Origin: Haliotis asinina
Lineage: Eukaryota > Mollusca > Gastropoda > Lepetellida > Haliotidae
Length of the DNA: 64,000 bases
NCBI RefSeq assembly: GCF_037392515.1
Contig: NC_090283.1
Location: forward strand, 28,288,249 to 28,352,248
Direction of reading: 5' to 3'
The translations under genes and the position numbers were made by a program. Of this stretch, positions 3,115 through 61,640 are shown in pieces. Every line of letters starts with the position of its first letter. Positions within the stretch are counted from its first letter, which is position 1. The notes beneath the pieces were generated by a model that had not been told where the DNA came from, ran no database searches, and saw only the letters and a list, made by a program, of their open reading frames with translations.

Positions 3115-3120
3115 TTTATT
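3115..3120 (-). terminator. Poly(A) signal AATAAA of the cysteine-rich secreted protein gene
   Basis: The minus strand reads AATAAATCC here, 42 bases after the stop codon ending at 3162. The predicted cleavage point is near 3095-3105, giving a short 3' UTR of about 60 bases. Confidence 0.75.
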
Positions 3121-3161
3121 GCTGATGTAAGAAGTTTAGAATTGTGAACTCATGTCATAGT

Positions 3162-4368
3162 TCACAGGCAGTTCCCTTCCTCGCAAGGATATGTCTCGTC
3201 ACATTTCCTTTCAGAAATACTTCCTTTGCGACAGGGCTGGCCATTGTTCATGGCACTCCTTGCGAGAAGGTTGTAGTAGGTCGACTGATTTTTATTGTAG
3301 TAACGACAGCCGTGTGGATTGCCACCGTAGTAGCGGCAGTCGAGGTTCATGTTACCACCGGCGTTTTTGCAGCTGTAGAGACGCAGCCCCCGAGGTCCGG
3401 AACCAGAGTTGCTTTTCTTGATCTCTGCGTAGCTACATGTTACTTCTCCTACTTTTATTGTTCCCTGTGGGGAAAGAGTGAGATCGTTAGGGTAGGTATT
3501 AACATACCAGCAGGATAGATGGAGGGGATTTAAAGGCAACAAGGTGTCACTTTCTCCCATAGAGGTGGGAGGGATGTGCAACTGGTAGCAATTCAAGGAC
3601 GTCACATGAAACTAAGATGACCTTTGAGGGCTCTGACAAAGATCTTATTCCATGTGTTACTGCTATTGAGATGACGGATTATAGGCTGTTAGCATGGTTA
3701 TTCAAAACTTCGAATATTGAAATTTATTACCCGCGTGGTCAACGTATGGGTAGGTGCGTACTAATCTCGTACGTCACAGGAGTGTCGTATCGGGTTGACG
3801 TGTGTCGTAACGGCGTGACCTGATATTCTAACAATTTGATTATAGATAACCGATGACCTCTTAGTTAGGCCACATTGTGACGGAACTACTTTCTCAGTCA
3901 TTACAAACACCTGAATTGATTCAATCTACAACTTTTACTGTGTCAATTAAGTTAGATGCTTTAACGTTATAACAGTTCAGGGCAAAAGTGTACTTTATTA
4001 AACAACACATTGGAGGTAGAGCTAACTGTATTTCTTTTCGAATGTGCCAATTAAATACTTAACGTAACTCAAATAACGTTGTTCTGAACGCCAGGACCCC
4101 CTACGACCAATACAACAAACAAACAAGAATACAGGTTGTTTCAGGAAGTGACTAACACTTGTCCGAGGACAATAATTACAGCTTTCGCTCTTTCAGATAT
4201 TATCTATAAGAAGGGCACTCGATCGCTTCGTATAATTCGTATGTAATGAGACTTTGTGTAGTATTCTCTATGAAATCATGGAATCATTACCGTGATGGTG
4301 GACGGTCCGCCGAGGGCTGGAGTTACAGTCATTGCCAGAGACAGCGCGCAGAGGATGACGACAATCAT
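3162..4368 (-). CDS. Small secreted cysteine-rich protein, two coding exons
   Basis: I join exon 4368-4291 (26 codons) to exon 3464-3162 (100 codons plus TGA), giving 126 residues. The first exon starts at an ATG five bases after a good acceptor (tgtatttcag, 4374) and ends at a gtaatg donor (4290). The last exon follows ttccccacag (3465). The join is in phase 0. Residues 1-20 are a classical signal peptide (MIVVILCALSLAM...PALG), so the product is predicted to be exported. The mature ~106 residues carry eight cysteines (precursor positions 36, 58, 69, 79, 104, 114, 120, 125), enough for four disulfides. They also hold a twice-used CRYY motif separated by GGNPHG, one NQS glycosylation sequon and a C-terminal CDETYPCEEGNC segment. 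A non-coding first exon with a TATA box lies upstream and a poly(A) signal downstream. No named family was recognised. Defence, shell or mucus roles are possible for such proteins in molluscs but are only inference. Frames open on the plus strand over the same bases are shadows. Confidence 0.75.
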
Positions 4369-4414
4369 TGTACCTGAAATACAACCATCACAAACATTTT
4401 TTGCATCCTCAATA

Positions 4415-4895
4415 GCTCCAGGGTATACGTTTCTCTGTACCCTGGATGCATCTACGGCTCAGCCCGATTGGTTTATTACCTCCCTTGACTGGCTTTTTAT
4501 CCAATCAGATGTCTACGCTGAGACGTTGAACGAACCAATTACAACTCACGTTCGCATTTTTCAGTTATCTAACGATTACACTCGGAAACACAAATCATAC
4601 AGATGTTCTCTGAGAGAGGTAGAAGGTGTTCTTGCATACATGTGGTATAAAGTTTCGGGTCTATTAACTTTTCTGTATGGCTTCCCCCAAATCTGAGTCG
4701 TACTGCGAAAAACCTTCGCAGTTGTGACCGCTATCTTTGTTGACACAGTCAACCACGATAGTAAAGGCGGCTTAGTTGATTGGCTACTGTGAGAATGCAC
4801 AGCCAGCAAAGGGAGGTAATAAAGTTACTGGGCCTACCCGTAGATGCATCCAGGGTGTTGTGGCGATTCATCGTAACGTACACCCTAGATGCCAC
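4415..4895. mobile_element. MITE-like inverted-repeat element in intron 1 of the cysteine-rich gene
   Basis: The arm at about 4417-4510 is repeated in inverted orientation at about 4777-4893. Matching landmarks are agggt-tacgt at the outside, accctggatgcatctacgg, then tttattacctccctt and ctggct, and an inner ccaatca. The arms are about 75-85 percent alike with a few short gaps. No transposase frame lies between them, and a perfect 8-base-pair hairpin sits near the centre (4702-4709 with 4715-4722). The gggaggtaa motif inside the arms also occurs at about 37949 and, as I recall, in widespread molluscan MITEs. Open frames at 4292-4696 and 4576-4809 fall on this element and are not genes. Confidence 0.65.
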
Positions 4896-5183
4896 AGGTT
4901 ACAGGGAAGGAATTCCACGAGAAGTCCGTAAATATAATAACTTTCTGAAACATTTCTGAAGATTTATACATATGTAATCTGTCGACAGGGATTATAGTAA
5001 AAGTGGGTGAAGGTTTGGTTTTACTTCGATCATTTCAGCATATTGATTATATTGCATATACATTTTGACATATGAACTGGGCACAGTCCTCCCAGGACTA
5101 CCTTCAGTGTAACAACTTGCATGTAACGTCAATTAACGCCGCCACAGTTTTCAACAAATATCATCATTTAATTCACTACGTAC

Positions 5184-5236
5184 CTGATCTGCTGTAAGTG
5201 GAGGAATTCTTCCAGCGGCAGTTGTCTTGAATATGG
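5184..5236 (-). other. Non-coding first exon (5' UTR) of the cysteine-rich gene
   Basis: On the minus strand, the predicted start site about 30 bases after the TATA box is followed by roughly 50 bases ending CAG (5184). A strong donor gtacgt follows (5183-5178). The matching acceptor is at 4374. The start-site end is approximate. Confidence 0.55.
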
Positions 5237-5260
5237 TAAACAGTGGTCCGATCAACCACC

Positions 5261-5267
5261 ATTTATA
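5261..5267 (-). promoter_or_regulatory. TATA box of the cysteine-rich gene
   Basis: The minus strand reads actataaatgg. It lies about 30 bases before the expected start of the non-coding exon, the normal spacing for RNA polymerase II. A TATA-driven, three-exon small secreted-protein gene is typical of strongly or inducibly expressed genes. Confidence 0.6.
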
Positions 5268-5514: not shown

Positions 5515-5588
5515 GTCCCTCTACCCGTTATCCCTCTACCCGTTATCCCTCTACCCGTTATCCCTCTACCCGTTATCCCTCTACCCGT
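5515..5588. repeat. 15 bp tandem repeat
   Basis: The unit ctacccgttatccct is repeated about 4.6 times with almost no differences, which suggests recent expansion or homogenisation. Confidence 0.95.
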
Positions 5589-16090: not shown

Positions 16091-16234
16091 GTTGTTATGT
16101 ATCTGCCTCGCTAGCTGACTTCAACAGTTATGTGTTATATATCAAGACTGATTGGTTTTAATTAACTATTTGTCTGACTATCTAGATCATTTAAAGCCCT
16201 CTTTCCCGTGTGCCCAACCCCTAGTAGTGTAATC

Positions 16235-17365
16235 GCCCCCACGTGCATTCCTCCCTCGTTTCTCTCATGTGCGCTCCTCCCTCGTTTATCTCCGAGTGTA
16301 TTCCTCCCTCGTTTATCTCCGAGTGTATTCCTCCCTCGTTTATCTCCGAGTGTATTCCTCCCTCGTTTATCTCCATGTCTGTTTCTCCCTCGTTTATCTC
16401 CATGTCTGTTTCTCCCTCGTTTATCTCCATGTCTGTTTCTCCCTCGTTTATCTCTATGTGCGCTCCTTCCTCGTTTATCTCTATGTGTATTCCTCCCTCG
16501 TTTATCTCTATGTGTATTCCTCCCTCGTTTATCTCCGAGTGTATTCCTCCCTCGTTTATCTCCATGTCTGTTTCTCCCTCGTTTATCTCTATGTGTATTC
16601 CTCCCTCGTTTATCTCTATGTGTATTCCTCCCTCGTTTATCTCCGAGTGTATTCCTCCCTCGTTTATCTCCATGTCTGTTTCTCCCTCGTTTATCTCCAT
16701 GTCTGTTTCTCCCTCGTTTATCTCCATGTCTGTTTCTCCCTCGTTTATCTCTATGTGTATTCCTCCCTCGTTTATCTCTATGTGTATTCCTCCCTCGTTT
16801 ATCTCCGAGTGTATTCCTCCCTCGTTTATCTCCATGTCTGTTTCTCCCTCGTTTATCTCCATGTCTGTTTCTCCCTCGTTTATCTCTATGTGCGCTCCTC
16901 CCTCGTTTATCTCTATGTGTATTCCTCCCTCGTTTATCTCTATGTGTATTCCTCCCTCGTTTATCTCCGAGTGTATTCCTCCCTCGTTTATCTCCATGTC
17001 TGTTTCTCCCTCGTTTATTTCTATGTGCGCTCCTCCCTCGTTTGTCTCTATGTGTATTCCTCCCTCGTTTATCTCCATGTCTGTTCCTCTCTCGTTTATC
17101 TCCATGTGCATTCCTCTCTCGTATATCTCCACATGCATTCTTCTTGTTGTTATCTCCTTGTGCATTACTCTCTTGTTTATATCCATATGTGTCCCTCTCT
17201 CGTTTATCTCCACATGCATTCTTCCCGTTTTTATCTCCATGTGCATTCCTTCCGTTTTTATGTCATGTGAATATTTTCCCTTGTTTATCCCCTTTCTTCG
17301 CTCGTTTACCGCAATGTACATTCTTCTAGTGTTTATCTCCATGTGTTGTCTACACGTCTTTAGCT
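16235..17365. repeat. 27 bp minisatellite, about 41 units
   Basis: The unit ctccctcgtttatctccatg plus tctgttt has several alternating variants (ccgagtgtatt, ctatgtgtatt, ccatgtctgtt, ctatgtgcgct). Units are clean from 16270 to 17090 and decay towards 17365. Since 27 is a multiple of three and the unit has no stop in most frames, open frames of 333-382 codons exist on both strands: SPSVFLPRL-type on plus and GGIHIEINE-type on minus. These are a property of the array. No splice site, signal or poly(A) pattern supports a gene. Confidence 0.97.
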
Positions 17366-18183
17366 TCATGTAATTCCACCTTTCTCTTCTATATTCCTTC
17401 CTTGCATATCATTTCTGTGTTTAATCCTGTGAATATTCATGCCGAGAATAATTGTTCTCGTCAATATCCCTTCCTTGAATGCTTCTTGTATATTTTCCAA
17501 TTGCAAACTACTGAATTACATTCTCCTTTTATACCTCCTTCTAACACCGTCTGCAAATGTAGAAATCAGACGTTATATCTCATCTTGTAAAACGTGTATC
17601 TGTACAAACATGGAACTAGCTACCAGATTTGACTCATTTTATGGTATGGAAATCCATGGTAGCTCCAGAATAAATACTCCCTGTTCTTAATCTATAAAGA
17701 TACGCCACGCATATACGGTTGGGTTTTGAGTCACCATTACCACGAGCGTGTTATTGACTACATTTATATCTGTCATGTTAATGTGACACATGACCCCTCA
17801 GGGGGATACCTCAACAAGCATCGCTCTAATGGAATTACTACAAGGACAACAGTCGCAACATTTAAATACTGATTGTGCTGTGTAACACCATTCCCCTCTT
17901 CAGACGGGGGTCAACCAAACAGCGTAATTCGTGTGGGATGTCTACTTGAATATTGCAGGCTGGTCATCTCATGTCATATTATTCCATCACAACGATCAAT
18001 ATTCCTCACACACAACCGTTGGGGATTGGTGGCCAATTACAGCAGCTACAGTCAATATTCATGTATTCATTGGGTGGAAAGGCACACATCACTCTTGACC
18101 CTGTATTGCTGCGTTGGTGGGGATCAGGATGATCCGGTTGGAAATGCAAATTTAAATGAGCTTATATCGCTAACCACCGGTCT
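17366..18183. other. Intergenic, nothing identified
   Basis: T/C-rich sequence next to the array, then AT-rich sequence. Frames at 17402-17690 and 17873-18214 show no domain or splice pattern. Confidence 0.4.
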
Positions 18184-18999: not shown

Positions 19000-19770
19000 C
19001 TGAAAAACGTGAGTGAAACTCGTCACGATGGATTGCATGTAGAGAAATGGTGGTAGGAATGGTAGTGTAAAGCAGTAAACTCAGTTATATCATGGTATGG
19101 TATCTGTATGTAAGGGGCAAGGCTGATGAGATGCGTTCCAGTCCAGCTCATGGGTTTTTACTGACAAATATATTTAATATAAAATCATGTCGAAAGTCGG
19201 ACTGGAATGAATAATGAGACTGGGACCAGAAACATTTTCTAACTATTTTTCCAACGAATTTACTATATTATCGTATTAAAAACGATAGAAGTCTGGATTG
19301 TCTTGTCCCGATTCGAACACGTATTGGTGTGATTATGCAGCCTTTACTTTGACGGGTTCTAGTTACCTACAGTCTTTACGTTGGTCGTGTGAAAGCATGG
19401 CGAGTGTCACAAGGCAGAGTTGATTAATGGGCCTGTGGTGAATAGTGGAATCGACTGGTTCCTCATCTCGTGAGTAATCTGATGACATGTCCGCTGTGTG
19501 ATTTATTTACACACTGGAAGATAGCAATGACAGATCATAGACGTGCAACAGTTCGATGACACCTGTGTTTCCCAAGGGAACATGGCTGTTCACCTAGATG
19601 TCACACTAACCTCTCTATAGTTGTCTAACAAGCGTCTACAGTCTCCAGTCACTCAGTGTCACATGATCTACTCCAGCACAACCAGGGTCCATCATATGTA
19701 GCTCAGCCTTTACCGCCACATGCTGATTCTGTACAACAGACAGGTCGTAGAAGTAGCATACCAGATGGAG
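19000..19770. other. Intergenic, nothing identified
   Basis: A tRNA-like block (cccgattcgaacac, near 19309) may be the end of an old SINE, but nothing else aligns. Confidence 0.35.
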
Positions 19771-20221
19771 TTGTGTGCTGTCATTGCTCTCAGTTGTGTG
19801 CTGTCATTGCTCTCAGTTGTATGCTGTCATTGCTCTCAGTTGTGTGCTGTCATTGCTCTCAGTTGTGTGCTGTCATTGCTCTCAGTTGTATGCTGTCATT
19901 GCTCTCAGTTGTGTGCTGTCATTGCTCTCAGTTGTGTGCTGTCATTGCTCTCAGTTGTATGCTGTCATTGCTCTCAGTTGTATGCTGTCATTGCTCTCAG
20001 TTGTGTGCTGTCATTGCTCTCAGTTGTATGCTGTCATTGCTCTCAGTTGTATGCTGTCATTGCTCTCAGTTGTGTGCTGTCATTGCTCTCAGTTGTATGC
20101 TGTCATTGCTCTCAGTTGTGTGCTGTCATTGCTCTCAGTTGTGTGCTGTCATTGCTCTCAGTTGTATGCTGTCATTGCTCTCAGTTGTATGCTGTCATTG
20201 CTCTCAGTTGTGTGCTGTCAC
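19771..20221. repeat. 23 bp minisatellite, about 19.6 units
   Basis: The unit ttgtgtgctgtcattgctct plus cag is almost uniform, with one polymorphic site (gtgtg or gtatg). Three units make 69 bases, and the unit has no stop in any plus frame. That creates overlapping frames of 180-205 codons reading MLSLLSVVCCHCSQLCAVIA. Not a gene. Confidence 0.97.
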
Positions 20222-20306
20222 ATGCAAGGAGCCAGATCCACGCCTTTATTATTGAACACGCCTGTCACCATATCCACATCCTTAATCACACGAATGATAG
20301 ACTATT

Positions 20307-20660
20307 CACATGCTTAACGACATATGCCTATCACTAAGTCCACATGCTTAACGACATATGCGTATCACTAAGTCCACATGCTTAACGACATATGCGTATC
20401 ACTAAGTCCACATGCTTAACGACATATGCCTATCACTAAGTCCACATGCTTAACGACATATGCCTATCACTAAGTCCACATGCTTAGCGACATATGCCTA
20501 TCACTAAGTCCACATGCTTAACGACATATGCCTATCACTAAGTCCACATGCTTAACGACATATGCGTATCACTAAGTCCACATGCTTAACGACATATGCC
20601 TATCACTAAGTCCACATGCTTAACGACATATGCCTATCACTAAGTCCACATGCTTAATGA
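20307..20660. repeat. 34 bp minisatellite, about 10 units
   Basis: The unit cacatgcttaacgacatatg plus cctatcactaagtc is nearly identical along the array, with a c/g variant after atatg. It follows the 23 bp array by only about 85 bases. Confidence 0.97.
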
Positions 20661-60045: not shown

Positions 60046-60189
60046 AGACTACAGAGTTAATGCTGTTTGCCTCATTGTTATTTATGCTGAGTTGTTAGAG
60101 ACTCTTTGGTGATGTGGATAGTATGTGATTTCATAGATAACTGAAAATACACTGCATATACTGTACTTTGAGCCAACACTCTTAAACAA

Positions 60190-61640
60190 ATGCCAGGACA
60201 CAGGTGACCCTGTTCCGCAACAGCCTAGACAAAGAAGACGCTGTACCACTGCAGTTCCCAGCAGCCTAGACACAGGTAACACTGTTCCCCAACAGCCTAG
60301 ACAAAGAAGATGCTGTACCACTGCAGTTCCCAGCAGCCTAGACACAGGTAACACTGTTCCCCAACAGCCTAGACAAAGAAGATGCTGTACCACTGCAGTT
60401 CCCAGCAGCCTAGACACAGGTAACACTGTTCTCCAACAGCCTAGACAAAGAAGATGCTGTACCACTGCAGTTCTCAGCAGCCTAGACACAGGTAACACTG
60501 TTCCACAACAGCCTAGACAAAGAAGACGCTGTACCACTGCAGTTCCCAGCAGCCTAGACACAGGTAACACTGTCCCACTACAGACTAGACAAAGAAGACG
60601 CTGTACCACTGCAGTTCCCAGCAGCCTAGACACAGGTAACACTGTCCCACAACAGCCTAGACAAAGAAGATGCTGTACCACTGCAGTTCCCAGCAGCCTA
60701 GACACAGGTAACACTGTTCCACAACAGCCTAGACAAAGAAGACGCTGTACCACTGCAGTTCCCAGCAGCCTAGACACAGGTAACACTGTTCCACAACAGC
60801 CTAGACAAAGAAGACGCTGTACCACTGCAGTTCCCAGCAGCCTAGACACAGGTAACACTGTTCCCCAACAGCCTAGACAAAGAAGATGCTGTACCACTGC
60901 AGTTCCCAGCAGCCTAGACACAGGTAACACTGTTCCACAACAGCCTAGACAAAGAAGACGCTGTACCACTGCAGTTCCCAGCAGCCTAGACACAGGTAAC
61001 CCTGTTCCACAACAGCCTAGACAAAGAAGACGCTGTACCACTGCAGTTCCCAGCAGCCTAGACACAGGTAACCCTGTTCCACAACAGCCTAGACAAAGAA
61101 GACGCTGTACCACTGCAGTTCCCAGCAGCCTAGACACAGGTAACCCTGTTCCACAACAGCCTAGACAAAGAAGACGCTGTACCACTGCAGTTCCCAGCAG
61201 CCTAGACACAGGTAACACTGTTCCACAACAGCCTAGACAAAGAAGATGCTGTACCACTGCAGTTCCCAGCAGCCTAGACACAGGTAACCCTGTTCCCCAA
61301 CAGCCTAGACAAAGAAGACGCTGTACCACTGCAGTTCCCAGCAGCCTAGACACAGGTAACACTGTTCCACAACAGCCTAGACAAAGAAGACGCTGTACCA
61401 CTGCAGTTCCCAGCAGCCTAGACACAGGTAACACTGTTCCACAACAGCCTAGACAAAGAAGACGCTGTACCACTGCAGTTCCCAGCAGCCTAGACACAGG
61501 TAACCCTGTTCCACAACAGCCTAGACAAAGAAGACGCTGTACCACTGCAGTTCCCAGCAGCCTAGACACAGGTAACACTGTTCCACTACAGACTAGACAC
61601 AGAAGGCACTGTTCCACAACAAACTAGACACAGGTAACAC
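60190..61640. repeat. 72 bp minisatellite, about 20 units, dimeric unit
   Basis: The unit is cctagacacaggtaacactg plus ttccacaacag joined to cctagacaaagaagacgctg plus taccactgcagttcccagcag: two related half units of about 31 and 41 bases. Because 72 is a multiple of three, the minus strand has a 511-codon frame (60082-61617) repeating LLGTAVVQRLLCLGCCGTVL, ending in 37 non-repeat residues. No signal, splice or poly(A) pattern supports expression. Confidence 0.97.

What the first reader, a model, noticed from the sequence alone, without database searches (positions are those of the whole stretch)
3115..5267. A complete small secreted-protein gene with an unfamiliar eight-cysteine pattern
TATA box, non-coding first exon, signal-peptide exon, phase-0 intron, cysteine-rich last exon, stop and AATAAA are all present and mutually consistent. 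The mature protein has eight cysteines, a doubled CRYY motif and an acidic C-terminal knot-like segment that I cannot place in a named family such as defensin, macin, Kunitz or WAP. It is the best candidate for an undescribed effector in this window.
Basis: partly seen in the sequence, partly recalled or inferred. Interest (0 to 1): 0.75.

Follow-up and report, generated by a model that had tools for sequence, protein, structure and literature searches.

The report
Abalone secreted FGFBP-core-like protein gene
This looks like a real abalone gene for a small secreted protein whose cysteine core resembles a very distant, stand-alone version of the vertebrate FGF-binding proteins, without the tail that holds the growth factor.

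Summary
The gene is real. The doubled CRYY is not conserved.
'No named family' is mostly wrong. The only Pfam family reported at E <= 10 is FGF-BP1 (PF06473; 22.2 bits, cut-off 25), and this exon is the only PF06473 match reported in the 1.14-Gb genome. Profile comparison with vertebrate FGFBP1 aligns cysteines 1-6; 0 of 200 shuffles with cysteines fixed reach its score. Predicted elements run in the same order up to the main helix.
It is not a full FGFBP: no C-terminal FGF-binding segment, and below Pfam's cut-off. Two genomic paralogs and three database relatives have KDEL-like tails; the window gene has none. Best reading: a secreted, glycosaminoglycan-binding FGFBP-core protein. Homology is moderately to well supported; function is inferred. 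An 'effector' role has no support.

The parts
5262..5267 (-).
   Evidence: Sequence; P0001 residue 1 maps to 5262; TATAAA occurs 57 times in the window on both strands
5184..5262 (-). Exon 1: 5' UTR if the TATA is used (5' end unknown), coding in the database model P0001
   Evidence: Donor CAG|GTACGT at 5184; same junction in P0001
4374..5183 (-). Intron 1
   Evidence: GT...AG, junction matched by P0001
4439..4856 (.). 418-bp MITE-like element with 56-bp inverted ends inside intron 1
   Evidence: Inverted repeat, 82% complementary; 39 other full or near-full-length matches at 81-83% identity, from the 40 candidates scored of 2975
4291..4373 (-). Exon 2: ATG 4368, signal peptide and first mature residues, MIVVILCALSLAMTVTPALGGPSTIT; phase-0 end
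   Evidence: hydrophobic maximum 3.23 Kyte-Doolittle over 10 residues; cleavage after ALG is inferred
3465..4290 (-). Intron 2, phase 0
   Evidence: GT...AG, junction matched by P0001; a matching phase-0 signal-exon/cysteine-exon boundary can be read in both paralogs
3162..3464 (-). Exon 3: 100 codons, eight cysteines, stop TGA 3164-3162
3201..3437 (-). FGFBP-core-like region, cysteine 36 to cysteine 114
   Evidence: Pfam PF06473 over residues 57-107; profile-profile over 80 columns
3168..3185 (-). Extra C-terminal cysteine pair C120-x4-C125 without a counterpart in FGFBP1; present in all six Haliotis proteins found
3115..3120 (-). AATAAA polyadenylation signal
   Evidence: AATAAA occurs 76 times in the window on both strands
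5516..5588 (.). 15-bp tandem repeat, 4.9 copies, 100% matches, about 250 bp upstream of the TATAAA

Best explanation
The gene makes a secreted, disulfide-bonded protein of about 106 residues whose first six cysteines form a stand-alone version of the N-terminal core of FGF-binding proteins (four beta strands, then a helix), plus one extra C-terminal cysteine pair. Shown: gene structure, conservation in Haliotis, a statistical but sub-threshold link to the FGFBP core, absence of the C-terminal FGF-binding segment. Inferred: it is secreted, folds like that core, and uses a net-positive surface to bind sulphated glycosaminoglycans in the extracellular matrix, either covering matrix sites or mobilising matrix-stored ligands. 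Direct FGF carriage is not supported, because the known FGF-binding segment is missing. Relatives with KDEL-like tails suggest that the same core is also used inside the ER. My odds: homology to the core about 0.85; glycosaminoglycan binding as main activity about 0.35.
For: FGF-BP1 is the only Pfam family reported at E <= 10 for the product, 1.4e-4, and the best for H. rubra P0002, 4.4e-5. Run over the whole genome, PF06473 reports one place at E <= 10, this exon (18.3 bits). hhalign of six Haliotis proteins against 14 of 94 FGFBP1, both trimmed to the core: score 28.8, P 1.6e-4, 80 columns, cysteines 1-6 in register; shuffles with cysteine columns fixed: mean 11.6, sd 2.2, maximum 17.0, 0 of 200 reach it; full shuffles: maximum 20.6, 0 of 200. 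Profile of 51 of 94 FGFBP1: 6 of 8 Haliotis sequences outscore all 4000 cysteine-preserving shuffles, though three of the six by under one bit. Reverse: 27 of 94 FGFBP1 outscore all 4700 shuffles. Cysteine spacing 20/21-10-9-24/28-9 against 16-8-8-23-11 in 78 of 94 FGFBP1; G-[NDKQ]-P-x-x-C at C4 in 92 of 94 FGFBP1, N-P-H-x-C there in 5 of 6 Haliotis proteins. Models from separate alignments give E-E-E-E-H in the same order. Net charge C1-C6 is +10 here, +4 to +6 in four FGFBP1. Parts of FGFBP1 other than its C-terminal 44 residues interact with heparin (PMC4241576, passage).
Against: Below Pfam's gathering score (22.2 and 23.8 against 25); 3 of 6 members have no PF06473 match at E <= 10, nor do the two paralog exons. 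P0005 and P0006 do not beat the shuffles, and only P0002 has E < 0.01 there; 67 of 94 FGFBP1 do not beat them in the reverse test. hhalign probability is 50% trimmed, 28% untrimmed, 4% in global mode (P 0.0033). Genome-wide E is 0.81, and none of 14 control genomes rang; a frog FGFBP1 finds nothing in the genome. The Haliotis model is weak (pLDDT 53), and after the main helix it has a low-confidence helix where FGFBP1 has a strand; neither model has a clear PDB match. The basic run after the main helix of FGFBP1 is not kept. FGFBP1 coding sequence is one exon (PMC4241576), here at least two. A C. elegans interactome paper lists no worm ortholog of FGFBP1 (PMC1513213, table passage).
Confidence: 0.62

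Rival explanations
1. An unrelated Haliotis-restricted cysteine-rich secreted family; the FGFBP likeness is chance helped by similar cysteine spacing.
For: Below Pfam cut-off; relatives found only in Haliotis among 4414 candidates; 3 of 6 members do not match PF06473; global profile alignment has a probability of 4%.
Against: Shuffles that keep the cysteine columns never reach the observed score, 0 of 200; PF06473 reports a single place in the genome, here; predicted element order agrees up to the main helix.
Confidence: 0.13
2. A host-defence (antimicrobial) or shell-forming mantle secretome protein, as the first reader's 'effector' suggests; the fold may still be FGFBP-like.
For: Small, cysteine-rich, with a signal peptide and net charge +6; only 80% identity between H. 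asinina and H. rubra; the paralog pair has dN about equal to dS, one of them with a broken frame.
Against: No antimicrobial family reported by Pfam at E <= 10; no paper of the library holds any of five tested peptides of it; no expression data could be examined here.
Confidence: 0.15
3. A full FGF carrier like FGFBP1, with the C-terminal cysteine pair standing in for the FGF-binding domain.
For: Core likeness; FGF signalling is reported in Spiralia (PMC8180254, title and abstract start seen in the listing).
Against: FGFBP1 binds FGF through its last 44 residues (PMC4241576, passage), a region with four invariant cysteines; this protein ends 12 residues after C6. FGF genes of the abalone could not be searched, since PF00167 did not complete.
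Confidence: 0.08
4. Gene-prediction artefact or pseudogene.
For: No RNA reads could be examined.
Against: Intact frame, consensus splice sites, relatives in other Haliotis species and paralogs with the same exon boundary.
Confidence: 0.02

Closest known systems
Vertebrate FGF-binding protein 1 (FGFBP1, Pfam PF06473), N-terminal core
   Same: Signal peptide; six cysteines in register; G-N-P-x-x-C or close to it at C4; Y-[WY] pair at the start of the main helix, mostly followed by a basic residue; predicted beta4-alpha order; net positive core
   Different: No C-terminal FGF-binding domain, an extra C7-C8 pair, coding sequence split by a phase-0 intron, below Pfam's cut-off, no basic run after the main helix
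FGFBP3
   Same: FGFBP1 and FGFBP3 share eight cysteines (PMC6206164, passage), so presumably the same core
   Different: Not compared by sequence here; its FGF binding also lies in a C-terminal 66-residue piece (same passage), which is missing here
Haliotis KDEL-tailed relatives (P0004, P0005, P0006; genomic paralogs L005, L006)
   Same: Eight cysteines (in L005 only across its frame break), same signal-exon/cysteine-exon boundary in L005 and L006, 45-53% identity of P0004-P0006 to P0001
   Different: Four more residues between C4 and C5 and a C-terminal RDEL, DDEL, KEEL, EDEL or KDEL; the window gene ends GNCL

Membership tests
FGF-BP1 (PF06473) | Score above Pfam's gathering cut-off (25 bits) | tested here: not met
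   22.2 bits for the product, 23.8 for the H. rubra ortholog, 18.3 for the exon in the genome search
FGF-BP1 (PF06473) | Six core cysteines in order, with G-N-P-x-x-C or close to it at the fourth | tested here: met
   hhalign register, spacing table; the five spacings differ by 1 to 5 residues from the commonest FGFBP1 pattern
FGF-BP1 (PF06473) | C-terminal FGF-binding domain with four cysteines | tested here: not met
   Protein ends 12 residues after C6; the four invariant C-terminal cysteines of 14 aligned FGFBP1 have no counterpart
FGF-BP1 (PF06473) | Same core fold | tested here: inconclusive
   Same element order up to the main helix in two separate models, but the Haliotis model has pLDDT 53 and differs after the helix; no FGFBP1 relative found in the PDB by sequence at E <= 10
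FGF-BP1 (PF06473) | Coding sequence in one exon (human FGFBP1) | tested here: not met
   Phase-0 intron between signal and cysteine exons; one exon for FGFBP1 per PMC4241576 (passage)
FGF-BP1 (PF06473) | Binds heparin and FGF | not testable with these tools
   Needs recombinant protein
Defensin, macin, Kunitz, WAP | Match to a Pfam model | tested here: not met
   None among Pfam families reported at E <= 10
ER-retained luminal proteins | C-terminal KDEL-type signal | tested here: not met
   Window product ends GNCL; paralog L006 ends KDEL, P0004 RDEL, P0006 KEEL

The most novel reading that the evidence does not exclude
The FGFBP core is older than FGF binding. In abalone it exists alone as a small domain with two fates, one secreted (this gene) and one held in the ER by KDEL-like tails; vertebrates would later have joined it to an FGF-binding tail. 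The core's original job would then be glycosaminoglycan binding or chaperoning of matrix cargo.
Probability: 0.35. Interest if true: 0.65.

Novelty: new variant of a known kind. Interest (0 to 1): 0.42.

Why it matters
Every FGFBP1 hit that carries a species name is a mammal or a frog, and no FGFBP1 relative was found by sequence in the PDB copy searched. A 100-residue natural protein that looks like the bare core would let one ask what the core does without FGF, give a compact target for a first structure, and help date the family. The KDEL-tailed relatives add a test of whether the fold acts as a chaperone before secretion.

Full report
What is there. The minus strand of window 3115-5267 holds a complete three-exon gene. 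Donor and acceptor sites are consensus, the intron within the mature frame is phase 0, and the spliced frame is MIVVILCALSLAMTVTPALGGPSTIT followed by a 100-residue cysteine exon, 126 aa in all. The window lies in G000 contig C4 at 28288249-28352248. The species follows from a database protein, P0001, named as Haliotis asinina and 100% identical over the full product. No convincing second copy lies in the window (nothing else below E 0.29) or in the 40 kb beyond its low end (E <= 0.01).

The 5' end. H. rufescens P0003 has a similar extension, 13 of 28 columns identical, while H. rubra P0002 starts at the signal peptide. A classical signal peptide favours the 126-aa form; this is inference, since no reads could be examined.

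Relatives. Besides P0001, five Haliotis proteins were found: P0002 and P0003 are the orthologs (80%, 74%), and P0004, P0005 and P0006 form a second group. Within the sensitivity of the search (shared 5-residue words) nothing outside Haliotis appeared among 4414 candidates at E <= 10. The genome has two more copies, at C4:22.188 and 22.227 Mb (such counts are lower bounds), both of the second group; a scan of 120 kb around them found no third. In both, a matching phase-0 boundary between signal exon and cysteine exon can be read. L005 has a frame break near an A run, and the pair has dN 0.12 and dS 0.11 over 80 codons, so the pair is recent and perhaps under relaxed constraint.

The family. Pfam reports one family for the product, FGF-BP1, E 1.4e-4 over residues 57-107; for P0002 4.4e-5 and for P0003 0.068. 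Of the six members 3 match and 3 do not, and the two paralog exons do not. All scores are below the gathering score. The same model run over the whole genome reports one place at E <= 10, this exon, at 18.3 bits and a genome-wide E of 0.81; the first look passed only two candidates, and none of 14 control genomes rang. So this search saw no better FGFBP in 1.14 Gb read exon by exon. A frog FGFBP1 query found nothing, which proves little.

To test the link further I needed FGFBP1 sequences. Profile-profile comparison of the six Haliotis proteins with 14 of the 94, untrimmed: P 6.5e-4 over 48 columns, probability 28%. Trimmed to the core: score 28.8, P 1.6e-4, probability 50%, 80 columns, cysteines 1-6 in register; in global mode P 0.0033 and probability 4%. 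Column shuffles that leave the cysteines in place average 11.6 (sd 2.2, maximum 17.0; 0 of 200 reach 28.8); full shuffles reach 20.6 at most (0 of 200). A profile from 51 of the 94 ranks 6 of 8 Haliotis sequences above all 4000 cysteine-preserving shuffles: P0002 at 20.3 bits, P0001 13.1, P0003 10.3, and three more by under one bit over the best shuffle (8.8); P0005 and P0006 do not pass. In reverse, 27 of 94 FGFBP1 outrank all 4700 shuffles, best 16.5 bits against 9.4. Spacings: 20 or 21-10-9-24 or 28-9 here, 16-8-8-23-11 in 78 of 94 FGFBP1. Shuffles keep composition and cysteines but not evolutionary background, so they are a control, not a proof.

Structure. AlphaFold2 of the Haliotis alignment alone is weak (pLDDT 53) but places strands at 54-59, 62-69, 80-88, 97-99 and a helix at 114-125 (numbering of P0001). 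The FGFBP1 model, from an alignment with no Haliotis row, has a core at pLDDT above 90 in 9 of 10 blocks from 61 to 160, with strands 62-66, 72-79, 83-90, 95-102 and helix 114-127. Laid on the sequence alignment by eye these are the same elements in the same order. After that helix they differ: the Haliotis model has a helix at 139-145, in a stretch below pLDDT 50, where FGFBP1 has a strand at 153-158. No FGFBP1 relative was found in the PDB by sequence, and neither model has a clear PDB neighbour. The two models could not be superposed with the tools at hand.

How it may work. FGFBP1 binds FGF through its last 44 residues, and other parts interact with heparin (PMC4241576, passages seen); FGFBP3 likewise uses a C-terminal piece, and FGFBPs release matrix-bound FGF (PMC6206164, passages seen). 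The abalone protein has the core and stops 12 residues after its sixth cysteine, so the FGF-binding part is missing. What remains is a core with a net charge of +10 between C1 and C6, against +4 to +6 in four FGFBP1. I therefore think glycosaminoglycan binding in the matrix is the most likely activity, at about one in three, and that FGF carriage is unlikely. The helix of mouse FGFBP1 runs into basic residues (RKQKN) where the abalone protein has SAMNNGQ, which speaks against a simple transfer of a heparin site.

The KDEL tails. P0004 ends RDEL, P0005 DDEL and P0006 KEEL, L006 KDEL, and L005, in another frame than the first part of its exon, EDEL. KDEL and RDEL are ER-retention signals in animals and KEEL a weaker form (recalled). 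The window gene and its two orthologs end at GNCL or GNCM. So one group looks ER-held and the other released. The tails are a direct sequence fact; the locations are inferred.

Verdict. It is not filed as a member of FGF-BP1, since the Pfam cut-off and the C-terminal domain were tested and not met. As an 'effector' it has no support. The literature searches named in Tried and rejected showed no report of an invertebrate FGFBP in the listings seen, and one paper lists no C. elegans ortholog of FGFBP1 (PMC1513213, table passage).

Noticed in passing
L005 5647-5745 and L006 5461-5799 (G000 C4 22.188 and 22.227 Mb); P0004-P0006: Relatives of the window gene carry KDEL-like C-termini (KDEL, EDEL, RDEL, DDEL, KEEL), suggesting ER retention of one subfamily.
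   Followed up: partly
L005 around 5649: One paralog has a frame break at a run of A in the cysteine exon; with its neighbour it shows dN about equal to dS.
   Followed up: partly
window 4439-4856: 418-bp MITE-like element with 56-bp inverted ends in intron 1; 39 other full or near-full-length matches at 81-83% identity, from the 40 candidates scored of 2975.
   Followed up: yes
window 5516-5588: 15-bp tandem repeat, 4.9 copies, 100% matches, just upstream of the gene.
   Followed up: no
P0004 and P0005: Listed as isoforms X3 and X1 of one H. rubra locus, yet they differ along the whole cysteine exon; the gene model may merge tandem copies.
   Followed up: no
window 16162-17408, 19629-20337 and 60082-61627: Long open frames made of short tandem repeats; low-complexity arrays, not genes by appearance.
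   Followed up: no
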